A DNA stretch of 64,000 nt from Utricularia gibba. Lineage: Eukaryota > Streptophyta > Magnoliopsida > Lamiales > Lentibulariaceae. The stretch lies in the NCBI GenBank assembly GCA_002189035.1, contig NEEC01000012.1:620001-684000 (forward strand), read 5' to 3'. The position numbers were made by a program, and so were the translations under genes. The notes beneath the pieces are model-generated. The model ran no database searches. It was given only the letters and a program-made list of their open reading frames with translations, and was not told where the DNA came from. Shown in pieces: positions 3,290 through 61,758 of this stretch (position 1 is the stretch's first letter; every line of letters starts with the position of its first letter).

Positions 3290-3541
3290 ATGCTTATACA
3301 TCCAACGAAGGGGAATTTCCGTGCACATTTTCTTATTGGTCTCAACAAATGCATACAACTCACGGGGAGTCCCTTGAACCAGCTATGCTTACCTCAAGCC
3401 GTGGCATCGTTGCTCTGGAAGGCTTCTATGCTTTCCAGAGCCAGGTTGGTTGTTCCTGCTGCTGCTGAAATGCTCTGGGATGCACACAACACCGTCATGA
3501 ATGATCGAGCAACGGCACAAGCTGTTTGAATATTGACGTTC

Positions 3542-6447
3542 TCATTCTGAAAGCAGGTCGTCCAACTCTGGCTCTTCCACGGATAAGCTATCCTCGATGC
3601 TTGTTGTATTCAGCATGTCCTCTGGTGGCAACATGGTTGCATCATCTTCATCATCCGGGTCTGACCACTCTGTTTCATCAGCAATGGAGTCAGTTGTTTG
3701 AGAATTTACACCACCAGCAGACAATGCTGGAACTGAATTCGTCTTTGGTTTAGCTTCTGTATCTTCACAGATGCAAGACGCTGGGTTTTCATGGAACGCT
3801 CCACGTCCCGGCCTCACCTCCTTGGGTTCTCCCATAAATCCCCTCTGAAATGTGAGGACACGTGAGACAAAGGCTTCCCATGACATTTCATTCCGGTTTA
3901 GAAACAGCTTGTACAGTTTTTTCGCATTGGGACGAATGGTTGGCTTGTGCCCAAAGTACCTCCTGCAGTAATAAGACCGACCAAACATGCACAGGTGATC
4001 ATAGTAGCCAGAAACCACAATAATAAAAGGTCAACCACTTACCTTCTTCCCGCTAGGATTTTTGCCATGTTCCCATTGTTATTTGAAACAAAGACATCGC
4101 TTTCATCACACACGATAAAATCAAGAGCTGCCATTCGAGATGAGAATGAAGAAAAAAGCTCCAATTCCCCTGGGGCAGCCAGGGTATCTTTTGAATAGAA
4201 GTTTGGGAAGAGTGATTTCAAAGGTGCCAGAGTGGCTTCCCCACCATATACTTCTCCAGAAGCCACATAAATATGAGTCTCTCTATCATATCCCAGTGCC
4301 CTTAGCAGAAGACCAACTTCCTCCGGAGTTAAAGGGCATCTACCTTGCCTTCTCTCCCTGTCTGGGTTCGGATTCTGCAATTCAAACCATTTTGAAGTTA
4401 AAAACTCAATTCAAATGCCTCTAGAACCAAAAAAAACTCGTGTAAAGAGGAGAGATCCGAGTTTGAAAGCAATGTGAAAATGGTTTCACAAATAATTTAT
4501 AGGAGGCCTAATTCATTAAACCAACTGGAAGCAAGGCTAAGGCAATCAGAATGAGCCCTTTGTAAACTATCTGGAGTAGTATTAGGGGAAAAATTACATG
4601 CAAGGTCTTCCACCTCCGCCGTATTTTAGCCAAATCCCTCCTCTCTTTATCTCCTCCACCATAATAGCATCCTGAGAATGCAAGCATATCTGGTTCAAAC
4701 CTGTAAACAGAAAGTATGCAAAACTGAAGAATGCACGTAAAATAGTGCAGAAAAAGAAAAACATGTTGCTCATTAAATGAAAACATTGAAAAGACAGAAG
4801 TACGCTGATCAACATGTGAAAAAACCTTCAGTACAAGCCTCAAATGGAAAAATCAAGTCAGTCAAAGCACCTTAGATGAAGCGCAATATAATGCTTGCTC
4901 TTCGATTTCATCCTTTCGACCAATTTCATACCCATTTTGAGGATGGGCTCAGTGAACTTTAGGGCATGGTAATTAACACGGCACCTAAGCTTCTGGAGAT
5001 CCACATCCAACCTATTTGCAAGTCTGTAGTCAAACTTGGTCAACTGAATAGCCTGCAATGTGAATTACTCTCATTACTGCTGGAAAAAAACTAGAGAATT
5101 GGCAGCCATTTGTTTGTCAAAAGCTTCAAGGGGAATGCTAATTAGTTCTTAGGTTCAAAATTCAACTTTTGTGAAGTATAGCATAATTCATTACAACAAT
5201 CAATTTGGAGCAAGAGAAAAATATCTACTTACGTGCTTTTTCATAAGTACAGGTACCAAACGATTAATGTAGCAATTTTCATTGCATTTTCTTGGAACAC
5301 GCATCCTATATGGATTCCAAATTTGACCTCTTCTCTGAGGGAGCTGTTTTATAATTTTTACATCTTTCTTCAGATATGATATAAACCAATCAACGTTGAA
5401 AATCTCAGAAAAGTTACTGCATAAAGTGACAACATTCCGTGTTAAGAGAGAAAACAAAAGACAGTAGAGAAGTGAACGAAGAACCCACCTGCTGTCCTTC
5501 CAAAAAGACTTCTCATCCAACTTTGGAATAATAAGAGTGGCATTCAATATGCGTGCTGCAACTACAGCATCAACTATCTGCAGAAATGCCAAGTAAAGAA
5601 TACAGAAATCCATTGTATAACAGAAACACTTCTCCCTTCCATCCAGACTGGCTTTTCAAATGAGCAAAAATATTACCCCTGTTCTTTGTTGGTTCAAGCC
5701 CCCACTGGTTGCGATGCCCAGGTAACGGTTTGGATGTGTCACAGCATCAGCTTCTGCCAGTCAAAACATACATGCAACTTTCCGCCGTCAGGAAAACAAT
5801 AAACGAACCAAAAAATGTGGAAAATGCAAGAACGTGATGTATATAGACTTTAAGAAATTTAAACAGAAAAAAAAAAAAAGCATTTGGAATCCAGCCAGCA
5901 TTTAAAGTTTAAATAAGTTCACATGCTTGCGAATTTGCTGCTGGCATTGCTGCATCCATGGTAGAATCTCGAATTTTTGGAAGTCCAGAGATCACGGTGA
6001 TGCATTCTTTTGCCGTTCTAGATCTCATCACAAAAAATACATCACTTTTAGAACAAATAGCAGTCGATAGAAGTATGATGCTTATCACAATCAACAGAAC
6101 TAACGAAAGCAAGCAAACCTAACTGGTACACGAAAAACCCTTTGAGATTCAGATTCATTTCCGGCATGCTACAGAAACAAAAAGGAAATCATATAGACAT
6201 GGCGCCAACTAGGGGCAAAATGAGAAAAAAAAAAAAAAAAACACGAGCATACGCTTTCCCTTAAACTCAAATTTTCCATGTAACGATGAGCGTGATCGTC
6301 CTCATGAGGGGAAGGGGCAAGCAAGTAGAGGAATAAAAACAGAAAAAGAATAACAGCTGAAGCGGCCGACGTGGTTGGAATCAGTCGATAAGAGTAAAAG
6401 GGGCGCCGCCGCGAAAACCCCATGAGACGCAGCGACGGCGGATGCAA
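3542..6447 (-). CDS. Plant O-fucosyltransferase family protein (PF10250/DUF246), 10 exons
   Basis: Predicted Golgi type II glycosyltransferase of the plant O-fucosyltransferase family, which transfers fucose to proteins or glycans. Proposed minus-strand exons: 6253-6447, about 6119-6168, about 5927-6006 (or to 6017), 5677-5753, 5489-5577, 5233-5416, 4871-5052, 4598-4700, 4043-4374, 3542-3962. Phases close throughout and give about 570 residues, normal for the family. The N-terminus is basic (GFSRRRPF) followed by one hydrophobic anchor near residues 28-47. Diagnostic blocks in order are IATSGGLNQQR, DAVVAARILNATLIIPKLD, FNVDWF, MRVPRKCNENCY, LRCRVNYHALKF, ALHLRFEPDMLAFSGCYYGG, RRQGRCPLTPEEVG, VASGEVYGGE, the tract from CDESDVFVSNNNGNMAKILA through GRRRYFGHKPTIRPNAKKLY, and FMGEPKEVRPGRG. 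The C-terminal tail is acidic. The second methionine (MGFSRRRPF) is an alternative start. Exon 2/3 edges are uncertain, and intron 3 appears to need a GC donor. The exact family member is not assigned. Confidence 0.93.
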
Positions 6448-8999
6448 TGCTTGAAAATGAAAACTTTAGCTAATGCCCCGTCAACATAACTGGGCACAAA
6501 ATGTGAGTTCCAAAACCACAAAACGAGTCTTTAGAAGCAAATACTTTTCCGATCCCAGAGAAGGGCCAAGCAACCTTCCGGAGCCTTAAAGCTTCGTCAG
6601 ATTTCACAAACACGATAAGGGGGTTTCCATAGTTCCTCGAAAGGAAGGTGGGGTGGTGGAGCCGGAGTACCCACAGCTGTAAAAACTACGGATTCATGAT
6701 ACTGCCAGGAGAATGATGGGATATCCAATCCCACAAATCGAGGGTTCCGGGAAAGATTGTCGGGTCAATCGCATGAATTTGGCACGGCATTTGTTTCTTG
6801 CGCTTTTCAATCCAATTTCATTAGCGTTCCCAAAACTGCAAATTTTAATCAATGGCGGAAGGCATCAGAATAATAATTTTGCGCCGGGTGTTCGTTCCAC
6901 TGAAGGCACTCGGGCTTGGGAAGAAAATTGGGCTTCAGTCCTTCACAATTAGATCAATTTATACTAACTGCGTCCAAATGAAATGGGCCTATTGCATTAG
7001 TTAGGAGCTTGAACATGTGTGGTACTGTTGTGATCGGTTTTGGTTGGGAACCGATGGCTCAATATCAAACTAAAATCATTAATTTGGAACCGAATCAGAG
7101 CCAAACCGTACGATTTTGATTGGAATTACGGTTTTAAATATTAAAAATTAATTTAAAAATTAAAATTATATTTTCAGACATTCATAACGGTCATTATGGA
7201 TATCTTAAAATACTTTCAAAAATATTGAATTTTTTCCATGTACTCACTTTAGCAATTGTGAATGCCTATGAAACATAATATTTTTTAAACTCCTAGGGAG
7301 AGATCCACAGTATTCATCTCATAACCATTATCACATCAAACTCCTGGTATGCATCTCGTTGTCGAGTATTTATAGAGGTTTTCTCCTATACACCCTTATT
7401 GAGGGAGTATAATCTCAATTGGCCGATTTAGGGGAGGCGTTAAGGAATACTTGCTCAATGATGGGTTTCGTCTACAGGGCAGACGTAAAACTATATTAAA
7501 CATTGAAATTCATATAAAAATATCTAATTTTTTGATAAAATATATTAATTTCATAAAAGACGAATAAATTGTATTTTGTCAAGATTACAAGTAGTTAGGC
7601 ATCATTCCCCTTACTTTGGGAGCTTTTCGAGCGATGTTGTGACTTTCTTCGCACCCATTCATAGTTATCTTTTTTTTAAACTTGAGGATTATGATGACTC
7701 TTTAACCCTATTACGGAGGAAAAATAGTCATTTCAATAATTATAACAACTATTGCTCTTCATAGATTATTTTCATACTTGAAAGTGAACTAAATTATTGA
7801 TTTAGTCCATCTTATATTTTAAATGATCATTATTTTTTGAGTTTTAGCAACAAATTTTCTAAAGATCGACAAATAAATTGTCACAAGTTTCATGCATGAA
7901 ATTCAATGGAGGGATTGAATCAATAATAAAAGAAAAGGAGTTTAGAACCTTTGTGTGTGCACTTCTTACAATGGTAATTGCATAAGTATGACAGGTCATG
8001 AGAGAAATCTTCTAAAATAGAGAAAATATTTGCAAAAAAATAAACTCTTATAAAAAACTAGACAAAAAAAAAAAAAGAGAGATGTTTTCACAATCCTCAA
8101 GTCCATATTTATGAAAGAATAGGAGAAAGATTTGAACAACATAAACTAAAAATCCCTAAATAGGGGAAGATGGACCAGAATAAAAAAAAAAAAAAAAGAA
8201 TTTCGACTAATCGAAGAACTACACTGAATTTTATGATTTGTTACGCTCAACTATAAATAACACTATGAAAACTGAATCCAATGTTCAATTAGAATTAAAC
8301 TTTGATTTTCATTTTTTTATTTTCTATTTTCAATATTGTGATAATGAAAACGATTTTGCTATTATTTTATATCATAATTCTATTTATTTTTAGTATGAAT
8401 GGTTAGATGTGGGTGATATCTTGTGGGGAAAAGGGGATGTTCTCTTTTATTTTGATTTCAATCTGATTGAGTTAGAGTATTTTTTTCTTATCAAATCTGA
8501 ATAGATTCAATAGGAAAAATGAATAATACATTTAACCAAAGATATATATCTTAGAGATAGCACAAAAAGTTATGAGATGTTTAATAAGGGCATGTTTTAA
8601 CCTACTTTTCAAAAATAACTTCTAATTTTTAAGAAGTAGAAGTTAAAAAAAGAAATAGAAAGTAGAATTTATTTTGTAAAAAGTTATAAATGATCTTTCA
8701 ATTCTTGTATTGATTTTTAATTCTCATTTTTATATCAAATTTCAAGTCTACCCTTCTATTAAAAATTTATTGTTATTTTTATCCATTTATGAAATAGGAT
8801 CAATATTGATAGTATAAAGTTAAATGAGAATAATATATTGATTCAAATAAATCATCCAACATGAAATACATAAATATATTGAACTTGGATAATAAACGAT
8901 TACAAATAAATTCTTTACTTAAATAGAAATAACAATCGAAATACATTAGTTACGATGAACATCTTTGATTTTATGAACTAGCTTGACCATGGTAGATAC
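6448..8999. other. Upstream region of the O-fucosyltransferase gene, then AT-rich intergenic DNA
   Basis: The first few hundred bases (to about 6960) are less AT-rich and probably hold the 5' UTR and promoter of the minus-strand gene. The open frame at 6713-6952 on the plus strand shows no family features. Near 7035-7110 an element-like stretch rich in ggttc/gaacc phrases resembles one at 58.2-58.4 kb. From 7140 the DNA is AT-rich with no recognisable gene. Confidence 0.55.
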
Positions 9000-33448: not shown

Positions 33449-34878
33449 TGATGCGTGTCGTTTTCACAATAAATTTTAATATTTTTAAAACTCATAAACA
33501 CGAAAACGTAGTACGGGTGTCGAACACTGAGAGATGTTTTTGAGTGAAAGGTGTTAAGTGTCATTTTCTAGTTATTTATTAGGTATTATTATGTATTAAT
33601 CTAGTATTAAGTCGCCCAAATTAGGAGTTTTATTATTAAGTATTTGATTTTATTAGAAAAATCCTATTTTCCTATTTTTTATATATTTTCTGTCTTTTTT
33701 CGTGCATTTTGACCAAGACATGTTACGAGATTGTCGTGGAGTGTTGTAGGAGTATTGCAGGTGGTCAGACGTTGTAGGAGTACGCGACTTGGAACGCAAT
33801 ACTAGTCAAGGCCCTTGACTTACGGCATGTCAGAGTCTGCAACAATGATTGGGCGTTAACTTGCACGCAAAGGAAAGCTGCTGGCACACGCAAGATAGAA
33901 TGAATGATGGGAAGGGAACCCAAAGGAGTTAATGCATGTGGGGAGTGATATAAAAGCCACTTGAAGCATTTAGTTTGGGACTTTTTGACATTTTCTCTTG
34001 TACTTAGAACTTTTGAGTTCTTCCACCCCTCAAGGAGGAAGAACACTTAGATTCCAATTTCGTTTCTGTTTTCATGGCCGTTTGTTGGTAAAACCTTTTA
34101 GTTTCTGGGAGAAGATGATGTTTCCATCCAAGTCTTGAGCAATACAGTTGGTTCTTCGCTGAATTCATTTCGGATTTTGCATACTTCTGCGCATCTTGTT
34201 GCAGTCTTTCTATAATGACTCCTAGTCAAGGTCCATGAGTAGCAGGCCACTCCTCGCAGATTTTGGTGAAGATCAAGGTGAAGAGCACCAACTCCAACCC
34301 TGTCGGTTTGAGGGAAGTAGCAGATTGTTTGTGGCCTAGGTACCGCGACAGTGGACAGGTTGTGACCTCGGACCTACCACTGGCCATTGGCAACAGCTGG
34401 GCACACGTGCACAATTCGGTTTTGAAGGCAATCGAAAGCAATCCTCTTATCTTCTTAATTGTCCAAGGGGGAATCATATGAGGCTATTCCCGTGTCTCCT
34501 TATCAATCAGAGTGTAAGGGAGAGTAGGCTATTCCTTGCTCCTATAACCAGCTATTCGGAGGAAATCAGTGAAAACCGAGGCAAGGATGGACAAAGGAAG
34601 GAGACGGAATCTCATTCCCAAGAATTGCATCCCGTAGTCAAGGCCCATCACTAAGGTTGTAACTTTTATTTTTGCATCTCAAAAACCCCCTTTTGTAAAA
34701 CCGTGACATTTTGTAAAAGTTTCTAATAAAACACTTTTCACGAAAAATTTTTAAATATTTAAAATTTCTAATAAAAGTTTCTAATAAAACACTTTTGCAA
34801 AACCATGACACTCGTACTACACTCTTTGTGTTCTACATTTTAAATATTTAAATTTTTTTGAGAAAACGACACGCAACA
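33449..34878 (-). mobile_element. Copy A of a repeat with long terminal inverted repeats
   Basis: The left end TGATGCGTGTCGTTTTCACA and the right end read backwards TGTTGCGTGTCGTTTTCTCA match. The similarity continues for about 100-115 bp (gtagtacgggtgtc versus gtagtacgagtgtc, then gtttttgagtgaaa versus gttttgcaaaag). The body has no recognisable protein (the minus frame 33765-34046 lacks motifs). The minus orientation is chosen by comparison with copy C at 63511, which starts TGTTGCGTGTCG on the plus strand. No target duplication was seen (catcat left, aaaggt right), so the transposon class is open. Confidence 0.6.
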
Positions 34879-34884
34879 AAAGGT

Positions 34885-36096
34885 GAGATACACCGAATAC
34901 AACTGTCATGATTTGTAAACGGTCTTGAAAGTAAAAGGTGTGAGAAACGTTGATGATGAAGCTTGAGTAAGGGAATAAGAGGGGTTTTGAACAGACAACT
35001 CAAATTGAAGTAAGCGATGAACCTTAAATAAATTAAATATTCCTGGATTTGGAATTCTGTCCAGCTATGTTCGTTGCGTCTTACTCTTCTCTGGTCTTCT
35101 CGAGTACTCGGTTATAGGAATAAGGAATTGTCTATCCTCCCTTACACTCTCTTGCAAGAAGGCACGGTAATAGTCTGATGTTGCTCCTTCTTGGACAAAT
35201 GTGAGAATAAGAGGTCTTGCTAGCGTACCCTCACGGCCAAATGACTCAATGAGTTCAGATACAAGGTCACTAATTGTCCATTGATTCTGAGGTACGACCA
35301 CAGACAAAACGCTGTCTTCCTCCTGCCAAAAGGGCACGAGTTGGTGCTCTCCACCGTGCCCCTCTCCAAAACTCGCGGTAGTGATCAGTTAACTATGAAT
35401 CTTGAATAAGGGGACTATTACAGAAAGTGTGCAACATAGTTGCATGAAGACAAACAGAACCCATTCAAATTTAAAGAAGAGATGAAGATAAGCTAACGAA
35501 ATATAGATCAGGGGGTGTCCCAACCTAGAAAATGGAAGTTTCTAGCCCCGAATGGCCATACAAACTAAAAGAAACGAGAACAAGTTTCTAGAAAGAAGCT
35601 AGAGGAAAATCGTCTAGAGAGAGAAAAAAAAAGGGAAAACTAAACTAACTCCTCTTCTCTGAATTGAACTAAGCTGAACTATTTTGTCTGAGCTTTCGTG
35701 TTCCTCTGGTTTTGCTGGACTTGGGGTGACTTGCAAGCAAATGTCTGCTCTGACACACACCAATGATGTCGCCTGTCAGAGACTCCTATGTTCCGCACGT
35801 CAAGGCTCATGATTAGGCGTCTGCAATCTTCGGGAAATCAAGGGAATGTCAGCTCGGGAAGATCCAATTTGTCGCCATCTACTACCATCTTTCTCTCACT
35901 TCCTACCACGTGTGCACCTCTAGAAAAACTCAATTAAAACTAGCAAAATTATTGGATAAAATACAAGATTTATGATAATTACCCTAAACTAGATAAAAAC
36001 CTAAATCTCATATTATAAACTCCTAATTAGACACTTCTAATCACATTTAGACATAAAAACAACCTAAGAAATAGTAAGAAAATGACACTTATCAAT
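34885..36096 (+). mobile_element. Copy B of the same repeat, head-to-head with copy A
   Basis: Plus-strand homology to the reverse complement of copy A runs from about 34905 (tgtcatgatttgtaaacg versus tgtcacggttttgtaaaa in copy C) through cggttataggaataaggaat and cctcccttacactct and gagttggtgctct. It ends in aactcctaatt..taagaaaatgacactt near 36092, where copy A has aactcctaattt..agaaaatgacactt. The outer inverted repeat is missing at both ends. The open frame 35065-35337 on the minus strand has no homologous reading frame in the other copies and is not called. Confidence 0.55.
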
Positions 36097-43300: not shown

Positions 43301-45098
43301 AAACAATCCAAGAATGGCCAGACGAAGCAGAATGACCATTCTATAAGGATTTATCTTGCTTGATGGTATTGGTATTTTCCGGGAAAGTGGCTGCCTTCCT
43401 TCATCAGCCCTGAATCCAACCCCAGAAAAATGTCAAATGTAACAACATCAAAAAGATATTTCGGAGGAAATTTATGACATTAAATAGAGAGGACCAGTCT
43501 CTTCATTTGTTTGTCTAGTGTTGGTTAAGTTTTACGTTTTTTATCACCGTAGGAGGTCAGTAATGGTTACAAGCAACGTGGGCCTGACCACCGACACTGG
43601 ATCGTGAAGAAAAGAACGAAGGAAAAAGGGGTTACTTGGGTAAATCAGGATCATCGAGCCTCTCTGCATCAGCATTGAGTCCTTGATGCTTAACAACTTG
43701 AAGTTTCTCGTTCTGCTTTCTCTTCCATTCCTCCATTCTCTCCTTCCAAGCAACAGTGCCGTAACCATAAACTGCCAAGTCTTTCTTCGGATCCATGGGC
43801 CTGGGAGGCACTAAAAAATCGAACAAGGTTAGGACAGTGTTGATCTCGTGAGTGAAACTAAAAATCACCTACATGTGCCGGATGAATCCGTGAAGGGAAG
43901 CCCATAAATTCGCTTCCCAGCAGGAGGAATGTTGGGTGCATGCTTTTCGGCTGCATTGGTATGGTCCTTCAACAAGACCAGAAAGCTGATATCAGGGCTT
44001 GCAATGAAATGTCGTGATGTAAACGCCAACAAAGAGGTCAAATCTACCTCTTCACCGTAAGTAAGAAGTGGGATTTCAGAGTTAACAGCAGAAGGATCCA
44101 TTCCAGCGGGAATTGTGATCCCGGAAGCATTTCTGCCGATGTTAAAGCGAGAAGAGCCAACGGCCGGATCAGGAAAATGTTTATTGCCATCATAATCAAA
44201 CTCACGGTCCAAATCATCGAACTCGTCCTCGTCTTCATCTCCATCGACCCTCGGACTTCCTGGATTCGATAAAAGAAAAAAGAAAATTAACTGCCATTTG
44301 GAGAAGCATCTGAGACAGACGAATGGCTTACCCTTAATTCGCTTGTATCTGGTTTTGCATTGAGGGCAAGCTTGATTTCCTTCCCTACGTTCGTATTCAT
44401 AGCAAGCTCTGCATGCAGGAAATGCACATTCGTTGCAGGCAACGAATGTATCGCCATTAATGGTAAATTCAATCTCATCTCCACAAATCTGGCATCTCTG
44501 GCCACTTAACTCTTTCACAGAAGTCACCTGTCAAAATAATCGTTCACCCTTTAAAAAAATTGGGAAGAAAACTGAAGAACTTTGACTGGGACTTGTTGGA
44601 CCGAAAAGAGACGATGGCTTCAGTGCAATGGCACTGATGGGGGCTGCTGTCAACAAAAAAACGCGAGGAGCCGAGACTTAAAAAAAAGAGAAGAAGCCTT
44701 AATTGCAAAAGTTGGAACAAGACAAAAGAGGTAATCGATCTTTTTCGCAACAGAAAACTCGTCCTTCTGAAGAAAGGACTCTGGTTAACAACTTTGGACA
44801 CTCTGTCCACAAATTCTTTTAAGTCTCGGCACCTTGCTTTATTTTTGTTGAGAGCAGCCCCCATCAGTGCCATTGCACTGAAACCATCGTCTCTTTTCGA
44901 TCCAACAGGACTGACTTCAAACTGAAGTAATGCAGGCGTGAAAAATCAAGAAACTTCTGTGATTTTGAAAACACACACAAGAAATTCAAGGGGAATACGC
45001 AACTTCAAGTTACATACCTTTCCAATCTCATCGGCATTGATGACAACGAACTCATTTCTGCTGTGTGAACCAGCCAAAAGTCTCCCGTTGGTATGCAT
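40306..45098 (-). CDS. CESA6-like: Cellulose synthase catalytic subunit, CESA6-like clade, 14 exons
   Basis: Plasma-membrane GT2 enzyme that polymerises UDP-glucose into beta-1,4-glucan within the cellulose synthase complex. Exons: 45018-45098, 44332-44527, 44048-44259, 43873-43966, 43636-43810, 43143-43409, 42716-43061, 42494-42631, 42302-42427, 42015-42227, 41671-41941, 41389-41585, 40964-41314, 40306-40890. Phases close to give 1083 residues, the usual length, without a stop. It starts [17 protein letters not shown], then has a RING-type zinc finger (about 37-85, eight Cys kept). Catalytic motifs: SDDG (about 395), DCD (562-564), TED (781-783), QVLRW (821-825). Eight or so membrane spans lie after [13 protein letters not shown] and in the last two exons. 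The C-terminus LEICGLNC and the variable region [16 protein letters not shown] favour the Arabidopsis CESA6/2/5/9 clade. Oddities: W to R (about 850), W to G (about 930), and an inferred GC donor in intron 11. Confidence 0.95.
44581..44922. repeat. Long foldback (inverted repeat) in CESA intron 1, MITE-like
   Basis: The arm 44591-44654 pairs with 44847-44912: about 64 bp with about five to six differences, including 30 bases without mismatch (44619-44648 region, centred on cagtgcaatggcactg). An inner stem pairs ccgagacttaaaa (44671-44683) with ttttaagtctcgg (44817-44829). A small hairpin, gtccttctgaagaaaggac, sits at 44761-44779. The whole is about 340 bp and lies inside the 487 bp first intron (44528-45017). 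No transposase or clear target duplication is visible, so a MITE or a local inverted duplication are both possible. Confidence 0.8.
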
Positions 45099-60295: not shown

Positions 60296-61302
60296 TGATA
60301 AACGGAAATTTTAGCATATCGTTGCAAATAAAGCAAATCTCCGTATCAAATAAATTTATAAGCCCTAATTTACACAAAATACAAATTTAGAAAACTTGTA
60401 CAGTGGATGACGGGGTCGATCACGAAGAGCTTGTGCTTGCTAAGTGTTTTAGTAAATGCATAATTCGGGATAACAGTTAATCTTAGTCTAAGCTCGGACT
60501 AATAGTGGTGAACAAGTTCCGTAAACAAGTTAAGTAGACAATATCAGGTCTCAACGCTAAAGCTAACATGTATTGGTTCTAACTTAGAATAATACTAAGA
60601 TGCCTTAAGGGTCTGCAGATGGTGTTATGCTAAGGTGCCTAATTTAATTTATCATGTTTCTACACTCACAACTTCAAATAACCTAAGTCTACCCAGGTCA
60701 TTCATCATATTGTCGGCTAAGCTAGTCCCCAATATCATAACTAACATTGCAATTAGGTCTACCCACATGCAAAACATATAGAATTGGGTCTACTTAGTTC
60801 TATTGGTTCTATCATGGACTAACACCTACTGCTCTCCTCTTGATTTGTTAGTCTACCCCTAAATCGAGCATCTTAGTTGTGAAACTACTTTTTCCCCGTC
60901 TTAGGTTTACCCATGGATTGAAAGAAACAAGAGTTAAGGAACACACATAAGTTTCGTTATTAACCCTAAGCACACACCACCATACTTCACCTTAAGGCAT
61001 CCCTAAGGTTTTAGCGACTCATACTTGGAAAATAAAGCACGATTTCATTCAGATAAGTTGGCGAGAATGATAGAAACATTGTAAGCAAGTCGGGTACAAA
61101 AAAAAACTAGAAATGTTCAGAAAATGGAAAGGAAATAAAGATTGTTCTGTCGCTTGGTTGCTACTGTTCACGGCCCGGAATAGTAGCACTGGATTGGGCT
61201 CCAGTGCTGCTCTTGATGATGAAGGCCTTCTTCCCTCTTCTGAATGGTGTTTTTCACGTTGGGGAAGAAGCCCCCTTGCGTGTGTTCTGTGCTCCCCTCG
61301 TC
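60296..61302 (-). mobile_element. Athila-like LTR, reverse orientation
   Basis: It starts on the plus strand TGATAAACGGAAATTTTAGC. Its first about 480 bp are the reverse complement of the LTR that ends at 61758. Shared stretches include ggggtcgatcacgaagagct, tgtgcttgctaagtgttttagtaaatgcata and acactcacaacttcaaataacctaagtcta. The rest (60776-61302) is taken to be the upstream part of this LTR, because the other copy lacks it. No primer-site sequence lies next to it, so it may be a solo LTR. The outer limit at 61302 is inferred from where the second copy begins. Confidence 0.7.
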
Positions 61303-61758
61303 TACACTTTGCATGCGGGTAGACCTAATTGCAATGTTGGTGATGATATTGGAGACTAGCTTAGCTGAAAATATGACAAATGACCTAGATAGACTTAGGT
61401 TATTTGAAGTTGTGAGTGTAGGAACATGACAATTTAAGTTAGACATTTTAGCACAACTCCACCTGTAGATCCTTAAGACATCTTCGTATTATTCTTAGTT
61501 ATAACATTTCGCATTGAAACTTGATTTTGTTTACTGAACTTACTTGTCATTGATAGTCTGAGCTTAGACTAAGATCTACTGTTATTTTGAATTATGCATT
61601 TACTAAAACACTTAGCAAGCACAAGCTCTTCGTGATCGACCCCGACATCCACTATACAAGTTTTCCAAATTTGTATTTTTTGTAGATTAGGGACTATAAA
61701 ATTATTTGATAACGAAATTTCTATTTTTGCAACGACATAAGGAAATTTTTGTTTATCA
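61303..61758 (+). mobile_element. Athila-like LTR, 5'-truncated, plus orientation
   Basis: It begins at ctttgcatgcgggtagacct and ends tttgtttatca. It is the inverted partner of the LTR at 60296. It is directly followed by a primer site and a gag gene, so it is the 5' LTR of the element that runs to the right. Its upstream portion is missing at the junction. Confidence 0.75.

What the first reader, a model, noticed from the sequence alone, without database searches (positions are those of the whole stretch)
44581..44922. Long foldback in the first intron of a CESA6-like gene
A 64 bp outer stem with a 30 bp perfect stretch and an inner 13 bp stem lie within the intron. The transcript of this intron would fold into a strong hairpin. 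It could be a MITE or a young hairpin locus producing small RNAs, and it may affect splicing of the first exon that carries the start codon.
Basis: seen in the sequence. Interest (0 to 1): 0.6.

Follow-up and report, generated by a model that had tools for sequence, protein, structure and literature searches.

The report
Retrotransposon hairpin with two U5 ends
The hairpin in the first intron of this plant cellulose synthase gene is a 314-base insertion from a miscopied Copia retrotransposon, both of whose ends are the same LTR end facing opposite ways; it is probably harmless, but it records an unusual reverse-transcription accident that was still integrated cleanly.

Summary
The foldback is real and far beyond chance (intron MFE z = -16.9 on the transcribed strand). 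It is a single insertion, 44594-44907 (314 bp), flanked by a 5-bp duplication GGACT. A tandem CESA6-like paralogue 53 kb away keeps the empty site (GACAGGGACTGACTTC); a third paralogue also lacks the insert.

It is not a MITE or a recognised microRNA gene: no other full copy was found in the 100-Mb genome. Its arms match the U5 end of a Copia LTR (a 425-bp solo LTR with TSD AGCCA on C413; both LTRs of an old Copia element on C375). The loop carries a Copia gag fragment. Both termini are U5 ends in inverted orientation (TGTTGGA.../...TCCAACA); neither matches the U3 end.

The left 142 bp spans U5 plus R, ending near the predicted transcription start, so it looks like minus-strand strong-stop cDNA that jumped to gag RNA. 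The gag end then probably folded back on a complementary GAGACTTAAAA and copied U5 out to its end, giving a U5-U5 palindrome that integrase inserted.

Origin, ends, TSD and empty site are shown. The strong-stop and snap-back steps are inferred. Small-RNA and splicing effects are untested.

The parts
44529..45016 (-). Intron 1 of the CESA6-like gene that hosts the insert (GT at 45016, AG at 44529)
   Evidence: Exon 2 begins [18 protein letters not shown], with zf-UDP domain; collinear intron in paralogues L021 and L020
44589..44593 (.). Target-site duplication GGACT, left copy
   Evidence: Single GGACT at the empty site of paralogue C244:717655
44594..44907 (.). The 314-bp insertion: palindromic Copia-derived element, TGTTGGA...TCCAACA
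   Evidence: Absent from both paralogues; no other full copy found in the genome
44594..44684 (-). Left arm: Copia LTR U5, antisense on the plus strand, ending at the U5 terminus
   Evidence: Matches the U5 end of the C413 solo LTR and of the C375 LTRs
44685..44735 (-). Probable rest of R, to the predicted RNA 5' end
   Evidence: 81% match over 48 nt (44682-44728) to C413; homology ends 34-39 nt after TATAAATA in relatives. The real transcription start was not mapped
44737..44819 (-). Copia gag fragment ([11 protein letters not shown]..., then [11 protein letters not shown] after an indel)
   Evidence: 81% match to C255:730594; relatives hit Retrotran_gag_2
44820..44830 (.). TTTTAAGTCTC: gag end complementary to GAGACTTAAAA at 44674-44684, the proposed snap-back site
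   Evidence: Arm alignment; gag relatives read GAGAC/AGACTAGAAAA at this place
44831..44907 (+). Right arm: U5 in sense orientation, ending at the U5 terminus TCCAACA
   Evidence: 95% identical to the left arm over the outer 66 nt; 94% to C413 over 54 nt
44908..44912 (.). Target-site duplication GGACT, right copy
   Evidence: As for the left copy

Best explanation
A Copia LTR retrotransposon made an aberrant cDNA that was integrated into CESA6 intron 1. Minus-strand synthesis ran from the primer site through U5 and R to the 5' end of the RNA (strong-stop cDNA, 44594 to about 44735). It then transferred to an internal gag site instead of the 3' R and copied about 90 nt of gag. The new 3' end folded back at a complementary GAGACTTAAAA in its own U5 stretch and copied U5 to the very end. 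Once double-stranded, this was a short palindromic DNA with a U5 terminus at each end, which integrase inserted with its normal 5-bp duplication. Shown: Copia origin, two inverted U5 ends, gag in the loop, TSD and empty site. Inferred: the strong-stop jump, the snap-back, and integrase as the agent. Today the intron transcript should form a stem of about 90 bp; the most likely effect on the gene is small.
For: 5-bp TSD and empty site in a collinear paralogue; both arms match the U5 end of C413 and C375 LTRs with alignment scores 8-26 sd above shuffles and match the C375 U3 end no better than chance; the same family leaves a solo LTR with a 5-bp TSD, AGCCA; Copia gag in the loop; left segment ends near the predicted RNA start of the family; the gag segment ends in a stretch complementary to the U5 arm just where the inverted copy begins; HIV-1 integrase in vitro prefers pairs of U5 ends and makes 5-bp duplications (PMC8742673).
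Against: The RNA start is predicted from a TATA box, not mapped. The GAGACTTAAAA overlap is only 11 nt and the C413 LTR has a small gap there. No intact source element remains, so exact junctions cannot be read.
Confidence: 0.6

Rival explanations
1. Two separate U5-ended cDNA fragments of the same Copia family were joined tail to tail by end joining (one U5-R-gag, one U5 only), and the joined molecule was integrated by integrase.
For: Gives the same U5-U5 ends, TSD and gag loop.
Against: Does not predict that the gag segment ends at a stretch complementary to the other arm just where the inverted copy starts; needs two partial cDNAs.
Confidence: 0.2
2. It is a MITE: a non-autonomous DNA transposon with terminal inverted repeats.
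For: Short, intronic, long terminal inverted repeats, TSD-flanked.
Against: No other full copy in the genome, while the same search scored 40 places from 618 candidates for another inverted-repeat element in the window; ends are Copia U5 ends and the loop is Copia gag.
Confidence: 0.03
3. An ordinary Copia insertion or solo LTR was rearranged later by inversion or gene conversion into an inverted repeat.
For: Copia remnants and inverted duplications are common in plant genomes (general knowledge).
Against: The rearrangement would have to put a second U5 terminus exactly against the TSD and remove the U3 terminus without a trace.
Confidence: 0.1
4. Whatever its origin, the hairpin is now a working small-RNA locus whose dsRNA silences the Copia LTR or alters CESA6 splicing.
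For: Near-perfect stem of about 90 bp in a presumably transcribed intron; one other genomic site, the C413 solo LTR, matches the 22-mer core with one mismatch.
Against: No small-RNA data; the Rfam miRNA hit is far below its gathering score; the arms are diverging (3 of 66); the only near match found is a solo LTR; splice-site dinucleotides are intact.
Confidence: 0.12

Closest known systems
Solo LTR of a Ty1/copia-type retrotransposon (C413:5213850-5214274 here)
   Same: TG...CA termini, 5-bp TSD, U5 sequence, similar size (425 vs 314 bp)
   Different: A solo LTR has one U3 and one U5 end in U3-R-U5 order; this has two U5 ends, no recognised U3, and gag between them
Deleted or rearranged retroviral/retrotransposon cDNA products (self-primed snap-back DNA, known for retroviruses from memory, not checked here)
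   Same: Inverted repeat made by reverse transcriptase copying its own product
   Different: Here the product appears to start from strong-stop cDNA with a jump to gag and was integrated with a clean TSD in a plant chromosome
TRIM / small non-autonomous LTR retrotransposons
   Same: Short non-autonomous LTR-derived insertions in or near genes
   Different: TRIMs have two direct terminal repeats with a primer site and polypurine tract; here the repeats are inverted and neither site is present
MITE and foldback transposons
   Same: Short, long terminal inverted repeats, hairpin-forming, intronic
   Different: Ends and loop are Copia sequence; single copy

Membership tests
Copia LTR-retrotransposon-derived insertion | Ends match LTR termini TG...CA of a Copia family | tested here: met
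   Both ends match C413 and C375 U5 ends
Copia LTR-retrotransposon-derived insertion | 5-bp target-site duplication | tested here: met
   GGACT twice, once at the paralogue's empty site; C413 has AGCCA twice
Copia LTR-retrotransposon-derived insertion | Copia coding sequence inside | tested here: met
   gag fragment at 44737-44819
Ordinary Copia element or solo LTR | One U3 end and one U5 end | tested here: not met
   Both ends are U5; U3 alignment scores at chance, terminal sequences compared
Strong-stop-derived palindromic cDNA | Segment spans exactly U5-R, ending at the RNA start | tested here: inconclusive
   Homology ends 34-39 nt past the TATA box in relatives; start not mapped
MITE | Dispersed copies of the same element | tested here: not met
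   Only itself plus two partial relatives; control repeat found in at least 40 places
MITE | Terminal inverted repeats with TSD | tested here: met
   66-nt arms, 95%; GGACT
MicroRNA gene | Match to a curated miRNA family | tested here: not met
   MIR8562 65.3 bits, gathering 211
MicroRNA gene | Precise small-RNA production | not testable with these tools
   No small-RNA data

The most novel reading that the evidence does not exclude
Integrated U5-U5 palindromes built from strong-stop cDNA are a recurring, overlooked class of plant insertions that seed new hairpin loci in introns and get filed as MITEs or young microRNA genes.
Probability: 0.25. Interest if true: 0.75.

Novelty: new variant of a known kind. 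Interest (0 to 1): 0.48.

Why it matters
Copia insertions normally carry one U3 and one U5 end. A cleanly integrated piece with two U5 ends, built from what looks like a complete strong-stop cDNA plus gag, would be chromosomal evidence that a plant Copia integrase accepts a U5-U5 pair and that reverse transcriptase can self-prime early in the reaction. It also gives a one-step route to a new intronic hairpin without a DNA transposon or a gene duplication, with an empty site for dating. It makes a testable prediction: other compact plant genomes should hold TSD-flanked palindromes whose arms equal LTR U5 ends.

Tried and rejected
(1) Arms plus loop as a duplicated protein-gene fragment: the 63-aa reading had no Pfam match, only a chance-level PDB hit and no other genomic protein match; the gag part became clear only through the C255 relative. 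(2) MITE: rejected on copy number and identity of the ends. (3) Known microRNA: Rfam hit far below threshold. (4) Ordinary or palindromic solo LTR: rejected because C413 and C375 show normal LTRs with a different U3 end. (5) C409:87040, a 3-mismatch match to the 22-mer: only about 20 nt shared; treated as chance. (6) L007 (C255) gag neighbourhood: no LTR direct repeats found. (7) Literature searches for integrated strong-stop or inverted-LTR palindromes in plants found nothing fitting in the held library, which is no proof of absence. (8) The Pfam search of the short gag peptide alone was uninformative.

Full report
OBSERVATION. The inverted repeat is real. Arms 44594-44659 and 44842-44907 are 66 nt and 95% complementary, with an adjoining inner pair 44655-44686 / 44814-44845 at 84%. 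On the transcribed minus strand the intron folds at -218.4 kcal/mol against -117.2 for shuffles (z -16.9). It lies in intron 1 (44529-45016) of a CESA6-like gene on the minus strand, whose exons match zf-UDP and Cellulose_synt. The genome (100.09 Mb in 516 contigs) looks like Utricularia gibba; that name is my inference from the assembly size, not a tool result.

INSERTION. Two close CESA6-like paralogues were found: C244:717655, 53 kb away on the same contig, and C460:732368. Both lack the hairpin. In the first the intron is otherwise collinear (203 of 221 aligned bases identical) and reads GACAGGGACTGACTTC, where the window reads GACTGGGACT-[314 bp]-GGACTGACTTC. The insert is therefore 44594-44907 with a 5-bp duplication GGACT. 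The arms differ at 3 of 66 positions (6 of 87 over the whole stem); with generic plant rates of 0.7-1.3e-8 per site per year (my assumption) that is roughly 2-5 million years. The arm divergence (K 0.05-0.07) is a little below that of the paralogues' introns (K 0.086), which fits an insertion after the duplication.

IDENTITY OF THE ARMS. A DNA search of the whole genome found no other full copy, only partial relatives on C413 and C255; the 22-base core occurs exactly only in the two arms, with one 1-mismatch site on C413 and one 3-mismatch site on C409. The same search run on the window's other long inverted repeat, 60576-61505, scored 40 places out of 618 candidates, so dispersed families are visible to it. 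The C413 relative is a 425-bp solo LTR with a perfect TSD, AGCCA (L006 4551-4975). An old Copia element on C375 (L055) has LTRs at 3307-3723 and 7852-8243; the first is followed by AGTGGTATTAGAGTG, a primer-site-like sequence, and by gag. The U5 ends of these LTRs share an ATCAGTG....CACTGAAA block and a TTTCG.TCCAACA-like end with both arms. Alignment scores of the arms against U5 ends are 8-26 sd above shuffles for C413 and C375 (3.6-3.8 for a diverged C255 LTR), and at chance against the C375 U3 ends. Both termini of the insert are thus U5 ends, pointing outward.

THE LOOP. 44737-44819 matches C255:730594 at 81%. That sequence is related to ORFs (e.g. L040, 485 aa) that hit Retrotran_gag_2, gag-polypeptide of LTR copia-type (E 3.7e-23). 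In the insert it reads [11 protein letters not shown] and, after an indel, [11 protein letters not shown] on the minus strand.

HOW IT PROBABLY AROSE. Reading the plus strand from 44594: U5 antisense, then R antisense, with homology to the C413 LTR up to 44728 and perhaps 44735. In C413 this point lies 34-39 nt past the start of TATAAATA, and a similar ATTAC lies 39 nt past the TATA box in C375. That is about where the RNA should begin, so the segment has the extent of minus-strand strong-stop cDNA. Next comes gag antisense, as if the strong-stop DNA had transferred to gag RNA rather than to the 3' R. The gag segment ends at TTTTAAGTCTC, complementary to GAGACTTAAAA at 44674-44684 within the U5 arm; from there on the sequence is a copy of the U5 arm out to its exact end. 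Snap-back self-priming predicts this. Once fully double-stranded, the DNA has a U5 end at each terminus. HIV-1 integrase in vitro uses pairs of U5 ends preferentially and makes 5-bp duplications (PMC8742673), so such a substrate is plausible for a related integrase. Shown: two U5 ends, gag, TSD, empty site. Inferred: strong-stop origin (moderate), snap-back rather than end joining of two fragments (about 3 to 1), integrase as agent (strong, from TSD length and ends).

FUNCTION NOW. The hairpin must be present in the CESA6 pre-mRNA if the gene is transcribed. Splice-site dinucleotides are intact (GTATGT...CAG) and the coding exons examined match the cellulose synthase family. I expect little effect. 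Small RNAs against the Copia LTR, or altered splicing, are possible but untested.

LIMITS. No close source element was found in the assembly, runs of N may hide copies, the search can miss diverged repeats, and no other plant genome could be searched. No earlier report of an integrated U5-U5 strong-stop palindrome turned up in the held library; much of the retroviral literature is not in it.

Noticed in passing
window 60576-61505: A 930-bp element with 198-nt terminal inverted repeats (87%), GTTCTAACTTAG.../...CTTAGTTATAAC, related to at least 40 places in the genome from 618 first-look candidates; most relatives match about 700-730 bp at 83-88%. A high-copy inverted-repeat family.
   Followed up: partly
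window 34509-35150: A possible 642-bp element with 50-nt inverted ends (80%), AGAGTGTAAGGGAGAG.../...CTCCCTTACACTCT; no clear target-site duplication seen.
   Followed up: no
L006 4551-4975 (C413:5213850-5214274): A clean 425-bp Copia solo LTR with TSD AGCCA, just downstream of ERF-like coding sequence.
   Followed up: partly
L055, L006, L063 LTR ends: The U5 ends of these diverged Copia LTRs all keep ATCAGTG....CACTGAAA, a small inverted repeat close to the terminus, although the rest of the LTR has drifted.
   Followed up: no
C244:664330-664527 and C244:717655-717852: Two CESA6-like genes in the same orientation 53 kb apart, a probable local duplication; about a dozen other matches to the CESA-type RING domain elsewhere in the genome.
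   Followed up: partly
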